Assembly (NCBI RefSeq): GCF_016888165.1
Contig: NZ_JACSWC010000284.1
Span: 1 to 46,378, forward strand
From: Halomicronema sp. CCY15110
GTDB taxonomy: Bacteria; Cyanobacteriota; Cyanobacteriia; Phormidesmidales; Phormidesmidaceae
Direction of reading: 5' to 3'
Length of the DNA stretch: 46,378 nt
The translations under genes and the position numbers were made by a program. Positions 15,199-46,126 of the stretch are shown here, piece after piece (position 1 is the first letter of the stretch; every line of letters starts with the position of its first letter). The notes beneath the pieces were generated by a model that searched no databases, was not told where the DNA came from, and saw nothing but the letters and a program-made list of their open reading frames with translations.

Positions 15199-15732
15199 AT
15201 GATGAAATCTCGACTCAGTCAATGTTTACTTGTGGGCTTTTTATTGCTCACGGCCTGCAACAGCACGCCACCGCCCTCTGAGGTTTTTATCTCCGATTCT
15301 GGGCAGTTTGAGATTGCTGCTCCGGCTCCTTTTGAGGAGACTCAACAATCCGTTGAGACTCCGGTGGGGCCAGTCGAAATTTATACCTTTACGGCGGAGA
15401 CCGAAAATACGGCTTACGTGGTCGCCTACTCTGACTATCCCGCTGAGATTATCGAACAGACCGATCCGCAAGCTTTGCTGGATAGCAGTCGTGATGGCGC
15501 GGTCAACAATTTGGGCGGCACATTGGTCAGTGAAGAGGTGATCGACCTGGCAGGCAATCCGGGGCGATCGCTCGTCATTAGTGCCAATGCGAATCAAGAA
15601 CAGACGGCGACGATCAATTCCCGCATTTATCTGGTGGAGAATCGGCTTTATCAAGTGCTCGTTGTGTCACCCGAGGGAGCCGAAACCCTTGAAGAGTCTT
15701 CGTCTTTCCTGGATTCTTTTGATTTGCAGTAA
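15199..15732 (+). CDS. Predicted lipoprotein, function unknown
   Basis: 177 aa. It has an N-terminal signal with lipobox LTAC at residues 17-20 (Cys20), giving a predicted lipid anchor after cleavage. The mature part starts with a Pro-rich spacer (STPPPSE) and continues as one globular domain of about 150 residues. The pattern FISDSGQFEIAAPAPFEE followed by paired strands and a C-terminal FLDSFDL resembles PsbP-like/DUF1795 lipoproteins, but I cannot confirm this. Two adjacent ATG codons (15199 and 15202) make the exact start ambiguous. It lies 133 bases after rsgA and may be in its own transcription unit. Confidence 0.8.
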   Translation: MMKSRLSQCLLVGFLLLTACNSTPPPSEVFISDSGQFEIAAPAPFEETQQSVETPVGPVEIYTFTAETENTAYVVAYSDYPAEIIEQTDPQALLDSSRDGAVNNLGGTLVSEEVIDLAGNPGRSLVISANANQEQTATINSRIYLVENRLYQVLVVSPEGAETLEESSSFLDSFDLQ

Positions 15733-16165: not shown

Positions 16166-16744
16166 ATGTCTGGTCTTCCCATGGTTTTGAGTCTGGATCA
16201 GGTGGAATTGACTGATGAGCAGTTCTACCGATTGTGTGAAGCTAATCCAGATACGCCATTGGAAAGATCGGCTTCAGGAGCGCTGATTATCATGTCGCCA
16301 GTTGGGGGAGAGGGAGGAGAGCGGGAAGCAGACCTCATTAGTTTGTTGTGGACATGGAATCGGCAAGCAAAGATAGGTAAAGTATTCAGCTCCTCAGCTT
16401 TGTTCAAACTACCGGGCGGGGGCGATCGCTCGCCAGATGCAGCTTGGATAGAAAGCTCTCGGTGGGAGGCATTATCGCCAGAAGAGAAGGCCGGATTTCC
16501 CCCGATCTGTCCTGATTTTGTCATTGAGCTGCGGTCTAAGACGGATGCGTTGCCGCCGCTACAGGAAAAAATGGCGGAGTATTTAGCCAGTGGTCTGCGT
16601 TTGGGCTGGTTGATTAATCCCCAGGGACAAGAAGTTGAGATTTACCGACCGACAGCCGTTGTTGAAAAAGTTGCCTTCCCGGCTCGGTTGTCTGGGGAAG
16701 CGATTTTACCGGAGTTTGAGCTGATTTGGTCTTTGCCGAATTAG
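16166..16744 (+). CDS. Uma2-family (DUF820) restriction-endonuclease-fold protein
   Basis: 192 aa. Uma2 proteins have a PD-(D/E)xK nuclease-like fold, are greatly expanded in cyanobacteria and have no settled cellular role. Seen: an N-terminal RLCEANPDTPLERSASGAL, SPVGGEGGEREADLISLL, the acidic SPDAAWI, and CPDFVIELRSKTD, where the usual ExK appears as ExR. The C-terminal GLRLGWLINPQGQEVEIYRP is typical. The start ATG at 16166 could instead be the in-frame ATG at 16181. It stands alone on the plus strand at the edge of the accessory island. Confidence 0.88.
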   Translation: MSGLPMVLSLDQVELTDEQFYRLCEANPDTPLERSASGALIIMSPVGGEGGEREADLISLLWTWNRQAKIGKVFSSSALFKLPGGGDRSPDAAWIESSRWEALSPEEKAGFPPICPDFVIELRSKTDALPPLQEKMAEYLASGLRLGWLINPQGQEVEIYRPTAVVEKVAFPARLSGEAILPEFELIWSLPN

Positions 16745-16888
16745 GTCTATCCTCCAGCGGCTTTCTCTTCTAAATAATCTATTAGATTGCTTGTGAATCT
16801 TCTGAAGTGGTTGGGAGGATACCGATAAGGTGTGAGATCAGGAATGAAAATAAATGATCGGCTTCAACGCTGAGATGTATCAACAACT

Positions 16889-17092
16889 TTATCGTTTCTT
16901 CCTTTTTCTCCTGCCCTTGTTTCTATAGTGTCCTTTAACCGTAACAGTTCTTTTATGAGGTGAAACATAAGTTTTTTTGCCACCTCGGAAAAAACTCTTG
17001 AATTTTCTTTTTAGTCTTCTAAGCTCTTTTTGGGTTGCGCTATAGACGAAAAGAGCGCCCAATATCGCTAAAATAATGAAAAGTAATTCCAT
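16889..17092 (-). CDS. Small membrane protein with a strongly basic tail
   Basis: 67 aa. Residues 1-18 form one hydrophobic helix (LLFIILAILGALFVY). The rest is rich in Lys/Arg and ends GRRKRKKR, so the tail is probably cytoplasmic and may bind nucleic acid or acidic lipid. A TVTVKGHYR motif sits in the tail. It starts 36 bases past the stop of the FGE-domain ORF on the same strand, so the two are likely co-transcribed. No clear ribosome binding site is seen, and the surroundings are AT-rich compared with the core genes. I do not recognise the family. Confidence 0.55.
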   Translation of the reverse strand: MELLFIILAILGALFVYSATQKELRRLKRKFKSFFRGGKKTYVSPHKRTVTVKGHYRNKGRRKRKKR

Positions 17093-17128
17093 GGTATTTA
17101 TAAATTATTCAATCGTATAAACACACAC

Positions 17129-17911
17129 TCACGCAGAGCAGACTACTCTGAATCCAATAAAGTCAGACTTTTCTTCAGGCTCTCTACGTCTGAAATGAGA
17201 GGAATTACACCCGACAGATAAATCTCTCCATGAACCTCCTCGAATAACGCCTATAAGTCTTTGCCGATCTTCTGCGGGTAGAGTAATATCAGCTTCATGG
17301 ATTTTCAGCCAATCTACACTTTGCTCGAGACACCATTCATAAACATTACCATGCATATCATATAGACCAAAGAGGTTAGGATAGGGGAAATGTCCGACTG
17401 GTGTCGTAGACTTTGATTTAGAGCCTAATTTTCCATCAAGAAAATTTGCATATTCAGGACTTATAGTGTCCCCAAAGTTGAATTTAGTTGTAGCACCTGC
17501 TTGGCAGGCATATTCCCATTCAGACTCTGTAGGCAAGCGATAATTTCGTTTGAACTCAGTTGATAATCTTTTGCAAAATTCGATTGCATCATATAGAGAA
17601 ATATTCTCTACAGGCAAATCTTTTCCCTTGAATTTAGATGGAGACTTTGGTAGGACTCGATCAAATTTGGGGAGGCAAGAAACTGCTTTCCATTGAGCTT
17701 GAGTAATTGGATATTTGCCGACAAGAATCTTAGACTCTGGCGAATGAAAATCTCGGCCTGGCATGGATCTCTCAGGGATGTAAGTTTTTGACTTTTCTTG
17801 AGCAGGAATGACAACCATCTCTAACTCAATTCCGCCACCAAGCTCTTCAGTAAAAAGTTGTGCCTGCTGTAATCTACAGAGAGATTCTATTTTTGAGCCA
17901 AAGGGTAGCAA
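17129..17911 (-). CDS. Formylglycine-generating-enzyme/sulfatase-modifying domain protein (3' part of a split TIR-FGE gene)
   Basis: 260 aa. Seen: LEMVVIPA, VGKYPITQAQWKAV, LPVENISLYDAIEFCKRLS, YRLPTESEWEYACQAG, GLYDMHGNVYEWC, IRGGSWRD and FRRREP...GFRVV, the order of a full FGE/SUMF1 (C-type-lectin-like) domain. I do not see the two-cysteine catalytic site of true FGEs, so it is more likely a binding or non-catalytic member. The listed start is TTG; the first in-frame ATG (residue 32) is already inside the domain. The frame runs on upstream without a break to the stop of the TIR gene, 10 codons away. In other cyanobacteria TIR and FGE domains are commonly fused, so this is probably the second half of one ancestral gene. 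Confidence 0.82.
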   Translation of the reverse strand: MLPFGSKIESLCRLQQAQLFTEELGGGIELEMVVIPAQEKSKTYIPERSMPGRDFHSPESKILVGKYPITQAQWKAVSCLPKFDRVLPKSPSKFKGKDLPVENISLYDAIEFCKRLSTEFKRNYRLPTESEWEYACQAGATTKFNFGDTISPEYANFLDGKLGSKSKSTTPVGHFPYPNLFGLYDMHGNVYEWCLEQSVDWLKIHEADITLPAEDRQRLIGVIRGGSWRDLSVGCNSSHFRRREPEEKSDFIGFRVVCSA

Positions 17912-17941
17912 CCTATTTCGTATTTCCTTGAATTCAGTGTA

Positions 17942-18475
17942 TTAGAATTTAAATCTTTTAAGCTGAGCACTCGAAGGAAATTCGCTCTTTCCTATTTGAA
18001 GTTGCTTTGTTTGAGGTGAAGGAAGATTTTGGAATTTAGAAGCCGGAAAATTAGCCTTTTCTTTTATTCCTGTGATGCCCCAGACTAATTGTTGCAATGG
18101 GTCCGGTACTGGTCTTCGAAAATCTACCCAATGGCGATTTCTCAAGAAAATGGGTAATTCAAGTCTCTCTGGAGCATTATTTAATATTACAGGGATTACC
18201 GGGCATTGACGTATTCTACATTCCTCTAGAAAGGCAGAAACTTCTTCACTTTGCCAGGAGCCAAGACCTTTTTGACCGATAAAGACTGCGGCAGCAGCAA
18301 TGTTCGTGATTTGCGTTTGCAGTTCATCTTGCCAAAGAACACCTGGTCTTAGATTCCATATATCAAGCCAAGGTTTTATTCCGTTTTTCTGAAGTTTTAG
18401 AGCCATTTGCTCGACAACAGCTTTATCTTCACTGTTATGGCACAGGAAAACGTCAAATTGCTGCGTTTTCGACAT
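17942..18475 (-). CDS. TIR-domain protein (5' part of a split TIR-FGE gene)
   Basis: 177 aa. The TIR domain covers about residues 6-135: FDVFLCHNSEDKAVVEQMA, GIKPWLDIWNLRPG, AAAVFIGQKGLGSWQSEEVSAFLEE and CPVIPVIL. The acidic residue after SWQS is in the position of the catalytic Glu of NAD-cleaving TIRs. Residues 140-177 are a Pro/Lys/Ser-rich linker. ATG at 18475 has AGGAG 10 bases upstream, a good initiation site. It ends in TAA, followed in the same frame by 10 codons and the FGE domain. NADase activity and a defence role are inferences from the family. Confidence 0.88.
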   Translation of the reverse strand: MSKTQQFDVFLCHNSEDKAVVEQMALKLQKNGIKPWLDIWNLRPGVLWQDELQTQITNIAAAAVFIGQKGLGSWQSEEVSAFLEECRIRQCPVIPVILNNAPERLELPIFLRNRHWVDFRRPVPDPLQQLVWGITGIKEKANFPASKFQNLPSPQTKQLQIGKSEFPSSAQLKRFKF

Positions 18476-18537
18476 CTATCAATTGCTCCTGTTAACCTTG
18501 CTCAATGACAAATCAGAAAGGCATTGCATGCCTATAT

Positions 18538-18750
18538 CTATTTTGAGAGTAATTCCGGAGTCAGCAACCCTTTCGAATCCAATCTCTTCAAATTGACCTT
18601 CGATGAGGCCAGGTCAATCTCAGAACCCACGACGCCTCCATCCTCATCAGAATCCACCACCGCATCTAGACGCAATCTCCTCCGACTCATTACTGGTGTG
18701 TCATTCAACCGGATCGATAGCGTATCCGTATCTGGAAGATATTAAATCTT
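18538..18750 (-). pseudogene. DUF2283-family remnant without a start codon
   Basis: Reading leftwards, the frame that ends in TAG at 18538-18540 encodes PDTDTLSIRLNDTPV, then DAVVDSDEDGGVVGSEIDLASS, close to the DUF2283 pattern (YDPxxDxLyIxLsd ... vDyDxdGxvvGiEIldAS). The start is destroyed: where MKIxYLPD would be expected there is AAG ATT TAA TAT CTT CCA (18733-18750), that is K-I-stop-Y-L-P, and no ATG precedes it. It is probably a decayed antitoxin-like or stand-alone DUF2283 gene. Family match is by eye only. Confidence 0.55.
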
Positions 18751-18933: not shown

Positions 18934-19503
18934 TCAAGCACTCCCGCAAGGATTCAGAAGTTGGGCAACAGTCATTGAAAACTCAGGAAACCGGGGTGAA
19001 GTGAGTGTGTCGCTGCCCGTGAGTTCCTGTGCCTCGTATAGGCCATCCACCAGCGTCAACACCGTCACCCGATCTCGGCTGGGGTCAAGAATCCAATACT
19101 CCCCAATCCCCCGCGCCGCATACTCCGATCGCTGGTAGCGATAATCGCGATCCTCATTCACCTTTCCCGGCGACACCACCTCCACCACCAACAGCGGCGC
19201 AGGCATCTCCTCCGCGATCGTGCTGCGGCCTGCATTCTCTAACGCCTCCGCTAATGGCTCACCCAGCACCATCAGGTCAGGCAGTCGCACCCGCCCCGTG
19301 ACGACTAACTGCGTATCCATCCGCCGCAACCACCGCAATGATACTTGTTGCAAAAGCTGACTAAGCAAAAAGAGCGAGATCAAATTGTTTTGTGGGCTTT
19401 CCGGTGGCAGCTCAACGATTTCTCCATCCACAAATTCACAGCGACTTTCCGGGCCATCTTCCAGACTCAGATAATCGGCAAGCGTCAGTTTGGTGGAGAT
19501 CAT
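18934..19503 (-). CDS. Uma2-family (DUF820) restriction-endonuclease-fold protein
   Basis: 189 aa. Complete Uma2 domain: LTLADYLSLEDGPESRCEFVDGEIVEL at the N-terminus, then VRLPDLMVL (acidic residue), LLVVEVVSPGKVNED (acidic core and downstream segment) and AARGIGEYWILDPSRDRVTV. The position of the usual ExK is occupied by EVVSPGK. It starts 30 bases after the stop of the broken glmS copy, on the same strand, and may have arrived with it. It has no visible operon partner apart from the DUF2283 remnant downstream. Confidence 0.88.
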   Translation of the reverse strand: MISTKLTLADYLSLEDGPESRCEFVDGEIVELPPESPQNNLISLFLLSQLLQQVSLRWLRRMDTQLVVTGRVRLPDLMVLGEPLAEALENAGRSTIAEEMPAPLLVVEVVSPGKVNEDRDYRYQRSEYAARGIGEYWILDPSRDRVTVLTLVDGLYEAQELTGSDTLTSPRFPEFSMTVAQLLNPCGSA

Positions 19504-19813: not shown

Positions 19814-20158
19814 TCAGCCTGCCTCTAAGCTGTCTAACAAACTTTTGATTCGGTGCTTTAACCCCGGTAAATCTTGCTCAATAACCTCCCAAACCCGAGT
19901 AAGCTTTACCTTCATGTAATCGTGGATTAACACATCTCTAAAGCCAGCCATTTGTCGCCAGGCAAGCTCTGAATTCTCCTGCTTAACCTCATCTGACAAG
20001 CGCTTAGTCGCCTCGCCAATGATTTCAAAGTTTCGAATTACCGCATCTTGAATGATTGGTGTGCTCATAAAAGCCGCTCGCCCACTCTCGGTATAGCTCT
20101 CGATTTTAAGAGCGGCTTCATAAATGTTGCTCAAATACAGCTTGTCTTCAGGAATCAT
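19814..20158 (-). CDS. hepT: HepT-like HEPN toxin (DUF86)
   Basis: 114 aa. HEPN RNase toxin of the HepT/MntA system. The motif Rx4HxY is seen as RDVLIHDY (R74, H79, Y81); R and H form the RNase centre, and the Tyr is the residue that MntA-type antitoxins AMPylate in characterised systems. IIQDAVIRNFEIIGEATKRLS is the typical DUF86 helix. Its ATG overlaps the mntA stop by 4 bases. Downstream, after about 20 bases, lies the broken glmS copy. Function follows from the family. Confidence 0.92.
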   Translation of the reverse strand: MIPEDKLYLSNIYEAALKIESYTESGRAAFMSTPIIQDAVIRNFEIIGEATKRLSDEVKQENSELAWRQMAGFRDVLIHDYMKVKLTRVWEVIEQDLPGLKHRIKSLLDSLEAG

Positions 20159-20448
20159 AGGGCAGTTGCATCCTTCAGAACCTGATCCCGTATGAGTTCG
20201 TGCAGGGTATCCGTTTCTACGATATCGACTGATCGCCCCAGCAAATCGGCTAAATCTTGCATCAGGCCAATATGATCTAGTAGGCTCCGTCCCGGTTCCA
20301 GGTCTACCAGCAAGTCAATATCACTGTCCTCATTTGCCTCCCCCCGTGCCACCGAGCCAAACACCCGAATATTGCTAGCCCCATACTGCTCAGCAATTTC
20401 CAGAATCTTGGCCTTCTGGCTTTGCAAGGTTTCCAACAGCGTCGTCAT
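20155..20448 (-). CDS. mntA: MntA-like minimal nucleotidyltransferase antitoxin
   Basis: 97 aa from ATG at 20448. The catalytic motif GSx10DxD is intact: GSVARGEANEDSDID (G31, S32, D43, D45), as in antitoxins that AMPylate HepT. An in-frame ATG at 20490 would add 14 residues and has GAGG upstream, so it is a real alternative; the N-terminus MTTLLETLQSQKAKIL fits the family better. The gene precedes hepT with a 4-base overlap, the standard order. The pair lies between intact glmS and the broken glmS copy. Confidence 0.9.
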   Translation of the reverse strand: MTTLLETLQSQKAKILEIAEQYGASNIRVFGSVARGEANEDSDIDLLVDLEPGRSLLDHIGLMQDLADLLGRSVDIVETDTLHELIRDQVLKDATAL

Positions 20449-20563
20449 CGGTGGGTACCGGATAAACGGCAACAGCATTGGGAAGCCCATGATCGCCTCA
20501 CATCAGCCAACCTGCTTTTCAGGCAGCTTCAGTCGATAGGCGATCGCTCCTGCTTCTTAATCG

Positions 20564-40315: not shown

Positions 40316-40876
40316 AACGTGGTTTGAATGACTGTCGGCATCGGCTTGCTAGGCTGCCAATGTGATCACCAATTAATGACCAGCCCGACTGACCCCTCAA
40401 AATAATCCAAGGCGACTTGTTCTGCCCCGTCAGTTTACGAGCCGCGTCTTTGAATGTCGCTTTGATTTGCTCTGTCAACATCAGCATCAGCACCACTCGT
40501 CGCTGATCGTCTAACCGAACTTTGGGGGACTTATTTCAACGCTACTCCCTAACGGGGCAACGTCGAAGAATTGCGCCAAGGCGGTGGAGTCGGCTTGATA
40601 ATCCACCTTCAGCAGCACACGTCGAATCGTGCTGTAGGAGGGTAAACGCTGCTTCGGCGGGTCAAACAGTTCTAGCAAGTCCCGACGGTAGCTGTTCAGC
40701 CAGTCGCCAATGGCGAGAAAGCCCTGATTTCCGGCAGTAACGGCCAACGTAAACAGTGCCAAGCACAAGGTCATCTGGTGTCGTTTACCGGAAGCCTGTC
40801 GAACATCCGGGAGTTCGGCAAAGGCTTCTAGAATCCCAATCCGACCCGTTGCCGGGGAGACGGGTAGACTCATCAT
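40272..40876 (-). pseudogene. ISAs1-type transposase remnant plus a second transposase fragment
   Basis: Bases 40511-40876 (121 codons, minus strand) match the N-terminal DDE_Tnp_1-associated region of ISAs1-family transposases: FAELPDVRQASGKRHQMTLCLAL, FLAIGDWL and LPSYSTIRRVL. The catalytic part is missing. From about 40515 leftwards a different frame reads DDQRRVVLMLMLTEQIKATF and KDAARKLTG, which looks like the start of another transposase, and then degenerates. The two pieces overlap at SPPKFG/KVRLDD. The ISAs1 match is firm; the second fragment is tentative. Confidence 0.7.
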
Positions 40877-45457: not shown

Positions 45458-46126
45458 GAGGGTGTTTTAAAAGTCGTGCAATGAGTAAAAAAGCTTTCTC
45501 AGTATAGGCTGCAAGTATTGATGTACGGAGCCCTGAGAAAGCTGATGGTTAAAGAGTATCCCAGCAACCTGAACCGTGACCAGTTCGACTTATTCAGCGA
45601 CTTGCTGCCGCCCGCGAAACCTGGGGGACGACCGCGCACAGTGGATGTCTATGCGGTGATTAACGCCATTCTGTATGTGCTCGTCGAAGGGGTTCGCTGT
45701 CGCGCCCTGCCGGGTGACTTTCCCCCGTGGCAAACGGTGTACATGTACTTCCGGAACTGGCGTAAAGATGGCACCTGGCAACGGATTCATGACCGATTGC
45801 GGGAGTGGTATCGCATCGAGCAAGGTCGGCAACCGAGTCCGTCCGAGGCCGTCATTGACAGTCAAAGTGTCAAGCGTGCTGCGGGGGTGAACGCCGCCGT
45901 CGGCTTCGACGCCGGGAAACAGATTAAAGGGCGGAAGCGCTTTCTGGCAGTCGAGACCCTGGGTCTGGTGATGGCTATATTCGTCACGGCAGCGAGTACC
46001 CCGGAACGGGACGGGGCAAAAACTCTATTGCCGCGAGTCAAAGCTCTCAAACCCCGCAGTATTCAACGCCTATCGCCAGTTTGTCGCGGCCTGCAATCTC
46101 AACAGTCTGAGTAACTTTGAACTTGA
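45458..46126 (+). mobile_element. IS5-family (IS1031-like) element, left end present, right end lost
   Basis: The left end is taken at GAGGGTGTTTTAAAAG (45458 onward), preceded by TAA, which fits the 3-base TNA target duplication of IS1031-type elements. It lies inside the DUF1016 remnant. The transposase follows. No matching right inverted repeat (ending AACACCCTC) occurs in the window, and the transposase is cut short, so the right end has been deleted. The exact right limit is uncertain; the transposase homology ends near 46045. Confidence 0.7.
45518..46114 (+). pseudogene. IS5-family transposase, truncated
   Basis: 198 aa against about 260 for intact relatives. N-terminal region DQFDLFSDLLPPAKPGGRPR and LYVLVEGVRCRALPGDFPPW are the usual IS1031-group DUF4096 domain. 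EAVIDSQSVKRA holds the first catalytic Asp; GRKRFLAVETLGL follows. Homology stops after KTLLPRVKALKP. The second Asp (ADAGY-like) and the catalytic Glu region are missing. The last ~20 residues are an out-of-frame read of another sequence. It cannot transpose by itself. Confidence 0.85.

What the first reader, a model, noticed from the sequence alone, without database searches (positions are those of the whole stretch)
17129..18475. TIR and FGE domains in one frame, separated by a single stop codon
The TIR ORF (177 codons plus TAA) and the FGE ORF are exactly in phase (18475-17911 is a multiple of 3). Between the TAA at 17942-17944 and the annotated FGE start are ten open codons (YTEFKEIRNR), and the stop falls in the linker just before the FGE domain. 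The FGE part has only a TTG start, and its first ATG is inside the domain. TIR-FGE fusions are common in cyanobacteria, so this looks like a fusion gene cut by one nonsense change, or one that uses readthrough or re-initiation. Both domain cores look undamaged, which argues against long decay.
Basis: partly seen in the sequence, partly recalled or inferred. Interest (0 to 1): 0.65.

Follow-up and report, generated by a model that had tools for sequence, protein, structure and literature searches.

The report
Sensor gene broken by one stop
In this cyanobacterium a gene that joins a TIR signalling domain to a sensor-like domain is interrupted by one stop codon that its intact relatives do not have, so it is probably a recently broken copy of a two-gene cassette whose second gene, for a small membrane protein, is still whole.

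Summary
A TIR ORF (17942-18475, minus) and an FGE frame (17129-17941, minus) share one frame, separated only by TAA at 17942-17944. Three intact single-frame TIR-FGE relatives of the same family carry a glutamine codon at the aligned site, in a motif that continues across the stop. Both halves match the same relatives (53-61% identity). The FGE half shows no accelerated change and no second stop. In a model of an intact relative the site lies in the first strand of a beta-hairpin before the FGE core, not in a loose linker. I found no typed suppressor tRNA (one tRNA hit unresolved), no RNA structure after the stop, no ATG before the core and a poorly placed TTG. Most likely this is a recent nonsense mutation separating TIR from its presumed sensor; sequencing error and two-product expression are less likely. 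New: a 67-aa basic membrane protein gene directly downstream (16889-17092) follows all four TIR-FGE genes at 35-42 nt and was found in none of the other 59 genomes of the order. The pair is a low-GC cassette. A Microcystis MAG and one further genome carry other stops in TIR-FGE frames, so breakage recurs sporadically.

The parts
17945..18475 (-). TIR ORF, 177 codons; TIR_2 domain (residues 9-130) plus tail; presumed effector half
   Evidence: weak sequence matches to solved TIRs including AbTIR NAD(+) hydrolase (E 0.0006-0.0075); AGGAG at 18486-18490, 10 nt before the ATG (sequence)
17942..17944 (-). in-frame TAA; the aligned codon is a glutamine codon in all three intact relatives
17132..17941 (-). 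FGE half, 270 open codons after the stop: rest of the beta-hairpin and FGE/C-type-lectin-like core
   Evidence: on the window's own sequence; on relative L066
17909..17911 (-). only ATG/GTG/TTG in frame before the FGE core (TTG); AAGGA lies 13 nt upstream, a poor spacing
   Evidence: sequence
16889..17092 (-). small gene, 67 aa: N-terminal hydrophobic segment and basic tail; conserved downstream partner, 36 nt after the FGE stop
16800..18600 (.). low-GC stretch (0.37-0.42 per 300 bases against 0.54 for the window) that coincides with the two-gene cassette

Best explanation
The locus is probably a horizontally acquired two-gene cassette: a TIR-FGE fusion followed by a small basic membrane protein. 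In the intact form the FGE/C-type-lectin-like domain probably senses a ligand and switches on the TIR domain (presumably an NAD-consuming effector), with the small protein as membrane partner; this working model is inferred. In this genome a recent nonsense substitution turned a glutamine codon in the first strand of the FGE hairpin into TAA. The likely product is a 177-residue TIR protein without its sensor; the FGE half is not made or only weakly, so the cassette is off or crippled. Shown: same frame, motif continuing across the stop, intact relatives, no second stop, intact downstream gene. Inferred: that it is recent, that function is lost, lateral transfer, and the roles of the domains.
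For: Three uninterrupted fusions of 425, 425 and 433 codons, all with a glutamine codon at the site; both halves match the same relatives (TIR 56-58%, FGE 53-61%). Full-length frames in 4 of 63 genomes of the order, only this one with an internal stop. The FGE branch of this sequence is not longer than its TIR branch (0.46 against 0.58 substitutions per site), and 270 codons hold no further stop; under unconstrained drift, with indels assumed at a tenth of substitutions, the chance of no further lesion falls to 0.03 at 3% divergence. The site is residue 11 of a model of relative L066, in strand 6-19, mean pLDDT 84.6. No stop-reading anticodon among the 42 of 43 tRNA hits that ARAGORN typed. 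No RNA structure after the stop, z 0.34. Of 37 other FGE places with a stop within 60 codons upstream (window and L084 set aside), 33 have an ATG before the domain; the window's frame has none. Sporadic internal stops in other TIR-FGE frames: L084 and G364.
Against: Both halves and the downstream gene are undamaged, which is also what retained function would give. Intact relatives are only about 53-61% identical in protein, so the stop cannot be dated from them, and no same-species copy was available. Another TIR-FGE gene (L084) carries its stop three codons from the same aligned place, which a purely random model would give about one time in twenty (my estimate, 20 of about 430 codons). One tRNA hit (L225) stayed untyped. 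No expression data.
Confidence: 0.74

Rival explanations
1. Split but working: the ribosome stops at TAA and restarts at the TTG 30 nt on, so TIR and FGE are made as two chains that still act together.
For: Both halves and the downstream gene are intact; a TTG lies ten codons after the stop with AAGGA upstream; FGE domains do exist as separate genes in these genomes; L084 shows a similar layout, a TIR ORF then an FGE ORF with a TTG start.
Against: AAGGA is 13 nt from the TTG, a poor spacing (sequence); no TTG at that place in L063 or L066; the restart would lose the first strand of the hairpin (model); 33 of 37 other FGE frames with a nearby upstream stop have an ATG, this one does not.
Confidence: 0.11
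2. Sequencing or assembly error: the real gene has a sense codon and is a normal fusion.
For: Draft assembly of 443 contigs; one base separates it from the relatives' codon; no reads could be inspected.
Against: Substitution errors are rare in good short-read assemblies (general knowledge; the sequencing method here is unknown); long housekeeping-type ORFs of the window (EF-G, DnaK, DnaJ, GlmS and ClpC, named by eye) look open at full length; genome completeness 99.93%, contamination 0.17%.
Confidence: 0.09
3. Readthrough: TAA is decoded at a low rate and gives a little full-length fusion, as a dosage control.
For: Frame open on both sides.
Against: TAA is the least leaky stop (general knowledge); no suppressor-type tRNA among the 42 typed of 43; no structure after the stop; the stop is absent from all three close relatives.
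Confidence: 0.03
4. Two unrelated neighbouring genes that happen to be in one frame.
For: One frame in three by chance.
Against: The sequence across the stop matches single-frame relatives residue by residue.
Confidence: 0.01

Closest known systems
Cyanobacterial fusion proteins with a C-terminal FGS/FGE domain (eLife 2020 9:e52696; passages seen)
   Same: Another domain N-terminal and FGE C-terminal; [quoted passage not shown]
   Different: No vWA or MoxR gene was recognised next to it; a small membrane protein follows instead; the window's fusion is interrupted. The paper files FGS among miscellaneous effector domains, whereas I read it as a sensor.
Targets of diversity-generating retroelements with CLec/FGE folds (PNAS 2024 e2316469121, passages; BMC Genomics 2020 21:664, passages)
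   Same: Best sequence match of the window's FGE half among solved structures is Treponema denticola variable protein 1, also the best structural match for the model of L066 (Z 25.7, rmsd 2.2, 201 aligned); TIR-like domains are reported in such proteins.
   Different: No reverse transcriptase family match in the draft genome; the C-terminal segment is conserved in the four members of the subfamily.
Bacterial TIR effectors (AbTIR, Thoeris, SAVED-TIR)
   Same: TIR_2 domain with weak or partial matches.
   Different: The partner is an FGE domain, for which PADLOC gave no match at E<=0.001.

Membership tests
TIR domain (Pfam TIR_2) | profile match over the curated cut-off | tested here: met
   86.8 bits against 28, profile positions 1-121 of 122
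TIR domain (Pfam TIR_2) | NADase activity | not testable with these tools
   a W-x-x-x-E pattern (W74, E78) is invariant in four sequences; its equation with the catalytic Glu is recalled, not tested
FGE/SUMF1 fold (Pfam FGE-sulfatase) | profile match and fold | tested here: met
   122.6 bits against 23.3 for the window; the model of the intact relative L066 matches TvpA, PvdO and FGE structures
Formylglycine-generating enzyme (active) | pair of copper-binding cysteines | tested here: inconclusive
   no residue alignment to an active FGE was printed; the pair is recalled knowledge; the three best sequence matches are TvpA, PvdO and ToxD
Single-chain TIR-FGE fusion | one uninterrupted frame through both domains | tested here: not met
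   TAA at 17942-17944; met in the relatives L063, L065 and L066
DGR target protein | reverse transcriptase in the genome | tested here: not met
   no PF00078 match in G000 (a draft of 443 contigs); the control rang in 3 of 14 genomes
DGR target protein | hypervariable C-terminal region | tested here: not met
   the C-terminal RGGSWRDL, GC.SSH and K.DF.GFR are shared by all four sequences of the subfamily
vWA-MoxR (VMAP) ternary system | adjacent vWA and MoxR genes | tested here: inconclusive
   four neighbouring genes are Uma2, Uma2, HepT-like and nucleotidyltransferase; the other genes of the window were only read by eye
Stop-codon readthrough gene | suppressor tRNA or recoding structure | tested here: inconclusive
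   none among 42 typed tRNAs and no structure; but one of 43 hits (L225) scored over the cut-off, was not found and was not typed

The most novel reading that the evidence does not exclude
TIR-FGE plus the small basic membrane protein is an undescribed two-gene conflict cassette that moves between cyanobacteria: the lectin-like domain senses, the TIR domain kills or signals, and the small protein places or restrains it at the membrane. The window holds a natural sensor-minus allele that separates effector from sensor, and stops at this hinge are a repeated way of switching such genes off.
Probability: 0.35. Interest if true: 0.5.

Novelty: new member of a known kind. Interest (0 to 1): 0.32.

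Why it matters
On its own a nonsense allele of a TIR-FGE gene is ordinary. It is useful because it points to a compact TIR-FGE cassette with a small membrane partner that has no Pfam or NCBIfam match over cut-off, and because intact relatives and a natural sensor-less allele give a direct way to ask whether the FGE domain controls TIR activity.

Tried and rejected
Diversity-generating retroelement: no reverse transcriptase match in the genome and a conserved C-terminus. Suppressor tRNA: none among 42 typed of 43 hits; the remaining hit, L225, gave conflicting results (41.1 bits, no match, untyped) and stays unresolved; one search scored 150 of 196 candidates. RNA structure after the stop: nothing beyond shuffles. 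Internal promoter for the FGE half: 3 sites in the region against 3.9 expected. Carriage on plasmids or viruses: no plasmid record covered 80% of the intact fusion, no plasmid match of the small protein, no viral contig relative of either. Wider phylum sample: only G066 of 386 genomes, itself the centre of the search; since the tally was one, the window's genome and the other relatives cannot have been in that sample. The first structure model (pLDDT 63.6) was weak, so a deeper alignment was used. G020, reported with a TGA, showed only its terminal stop in the frame; L069 and L070 carry stops inside FGE; G034 contig C1, reported with three stops, was not looked at. Gene-order check: no ORF of at least 80 codons elsewhere in the window matched L063; L065 shared only ATPase matches; L066 has an RsgA-family gene 31% identical to the window's, on the same side about 2 kb away, and one further match, so shared context with L066 is not fully excluded. 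A search for papers holding 'FGE-sulfatase', 'TIR domain' and 'cyanobacteria' gave none; two searches gave listings only. dN/dS was not computed, because relatives this distant are unsuitable.

Full report
Observation. The TIR ORF (17942-18475, minus strand, 177 codons) ends in TAA at 17942-17944, and the same frame stays open for 270 further codons to the stop at 17129. The ten codons before the only start-like codon ahead of the FGE core (TTG, 17909-17911) read YTEFKEIRNR, as reported. Pfam finds TIR_2 in the first half and FGE-sulfatase in the second, both far over cut-off.

Relatives. A TIR search of 115 related genomes gave, among others, TIR relatives in frames of 425-433 codons. Fetching them and aligning them showed three single-frame TIR-FGE fusions: L063 (G066, 425 codons), L066 (G078, 425) and L065 (G072, 433), all in the window's family and all three in one other genus. 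Against the window they are 56-58% identical in TIR and 53-61% in FGE. Across the stop the match is continuous: window FKF*YTE, relatives FKFQYTQ, FKFQYTE and SKIQYIE, each with a glutamine codon at the site. A profile of the four finds full-length matches in 4 of 63 genomes of the order and, at E<=1e-95, matches in 6 of 388 of the class (the four plus two more distant fusions, G219 and G277). Among these only the window's copy has an internal stop. The four match by construction, since the profile was made from them; the informative part is how few others do. The five other genomes of the same genus have no match at that level, so no closer copy was available.

Where the stop falls. A model of the FGE part of L066 from 54 aligned sequences (mean pLDDT 84.6) has a first strand at residues 6-19. 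The glutamine is residue 173 of L066, which is residue 11 of this model. In the structural alignments the matches to TvpA, PvdO and human FGE start at model residues 36-48, while some others (PorK and some bacterial FGE chains) list ranges from residue 1. So the core lies downstream of the stop, and the stop is in an ordered element attached to it rather than in a loose linker. This is carried over from L066; the window's own sequence was not folded. [quoted passage not shown]

State of the FGE half. On maximum-likelihood trees the window's terminal branch is 0.58 for TIR and 0.46 for FGE, so there is no sign of long relaxed change after the stop. 4.85% of single substitutions in the FGE half would create a stop; with indels assumed at one tenth of substitutions, the chance of seeing no further lesion is 0.30 at 1% neutral divergence and 0.03 at 3%; counting stops only it is 0.31 at 3%. 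Either the stop is recent or the half is still kept. I prefer recent, because the restart is poor: TTG with AAGGA 13 nt upstream, no ATG until codon 42, and no TTG at that place in L063 or L066. Of 39 FGE places with a stop within 60 codons upstream, six lack an ATG before the domain: the window, L084 and four others. Only the window and L084 also have a same-frame upstream ORF of 120 codons or more; the longest of the rest is 111, in L138.

Recoding. 43 tRNA hits were found in the genome; 42 were typed and none has an anticodon for a stop codon. The last (L225) stayed unresolved. The RNA after the stop folds no better than shuffles.

Other broken TIR-FGE genes. L084, a Microcystis MAG, has TGA three codons beyond the aligned place, where L072, L090 and L229 have a glycine codon. 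Among 14 full-length TIR-FGE frames that I count in the class survey (a capped list, so a lower bound), internal stops occur in the window's genome and in G364, where the stop is within the FGE core; the stops reported there for G066 and G154 are their terminal ones. The pattern looks like sporadic inactivation, with a mild hint of clustering at the hinge (two of three).

The cassette. Directly downstream of the FGE half lies a 67-codon gene (16889-17092, minus). The same gene follows all three intact fusions; gaps in the four are 35-42 nt. It has a hydrophobic N-terminus (best 15-residue Kyte-Doolittle mean 2.8-3.4) and 13-15 Lys/Arg in its last 35 residues. A profile of the four finds it in 4 of 63 genomes of the order and 4 of 388 of the class, the same four genomes. 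These again match by construction and three share a genus; the point is that no other genome in either sample has it. None of its Pfam or NCBIfam matches passes a cut-off. The cassette is poor in GC (GC3 0.30-0.32 against 0.49-0.75 in seven genes of the window), and the low-GC stretch coincides with it. Neighbouring genes are mostly not shared with the relatives, with the exceptions given under Tried and rejected. This suggests lateral transfer.

Working model. The C-terminal lectin-type domain has been proposed to sense invasion in related conflict systems (PNAS 2024 e2316469121, passage), although eLife 9:e52696 lists FGS among miscellaneous effector domains; the latter also states that TIR domains cleave NAD+ (passages). 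I infer that the intact fusion couples sensing to TIR activity, with the small protein at the membrane. The window's allele would make TIR without its sensor. None of this was tested.

Verdict. As a biological event it is ordinary (a nonsense allele); the cassette it leads to is the more useful result.

Noticed in passing
window 16889-17092 (-): Small basic membrane-type protein gene, the next gene after TIR-FGE in four genomes and found in no other of the 63 genomes of the order.
   Followed up: yes
window 19814-20490 (-): HepT-like and nucleotidyltransferase pair, which looks like a HepT-MntA toxin-antitoxin pair, about 1.3 kb from the cassette.
   Followed up: partly
window 16166-16744 (+) and 18934-19503 (-): Two Uma2 (putative restriction endonuclease) genes flank the cassette.
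   Followed up: partly
L084 5998-7356: Microcystis MAG TIR-FGE frame with one in-frame TGA in the same motif; intact in the related sequences L072, L090 and L229.
   Followed up: partly
L234 (G364): TIR-FGE frame with TAA inside the FGE core.
   Followed up: no
L068 (G000 contig C331): Row of three FGE-bearing genes with an AAA-type ATPase gene next to them, resembling a MoxR/VMAP-type locus, in the same genome (the ATPase read by eye).
   Followed up: no
L225 (G000 contig C196): tRNA-like hit of 99 bases that one search scores over the cut-off and another does not find; anticodon unresolved.
   Followed up: partly
window 40511-40876 (-) and 45518-46114 (+): Short transposase-like ORFs: a DDE_Tnp_1-associated domain alone, and an IS4/5-type transposase whose DDE match ends early in the profile.
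   Followed up: no
window 15199-15732 (+): ORF that looks like a lipoprotein by eye, without a Pfam match at E<=0.001.
   Followed up: no
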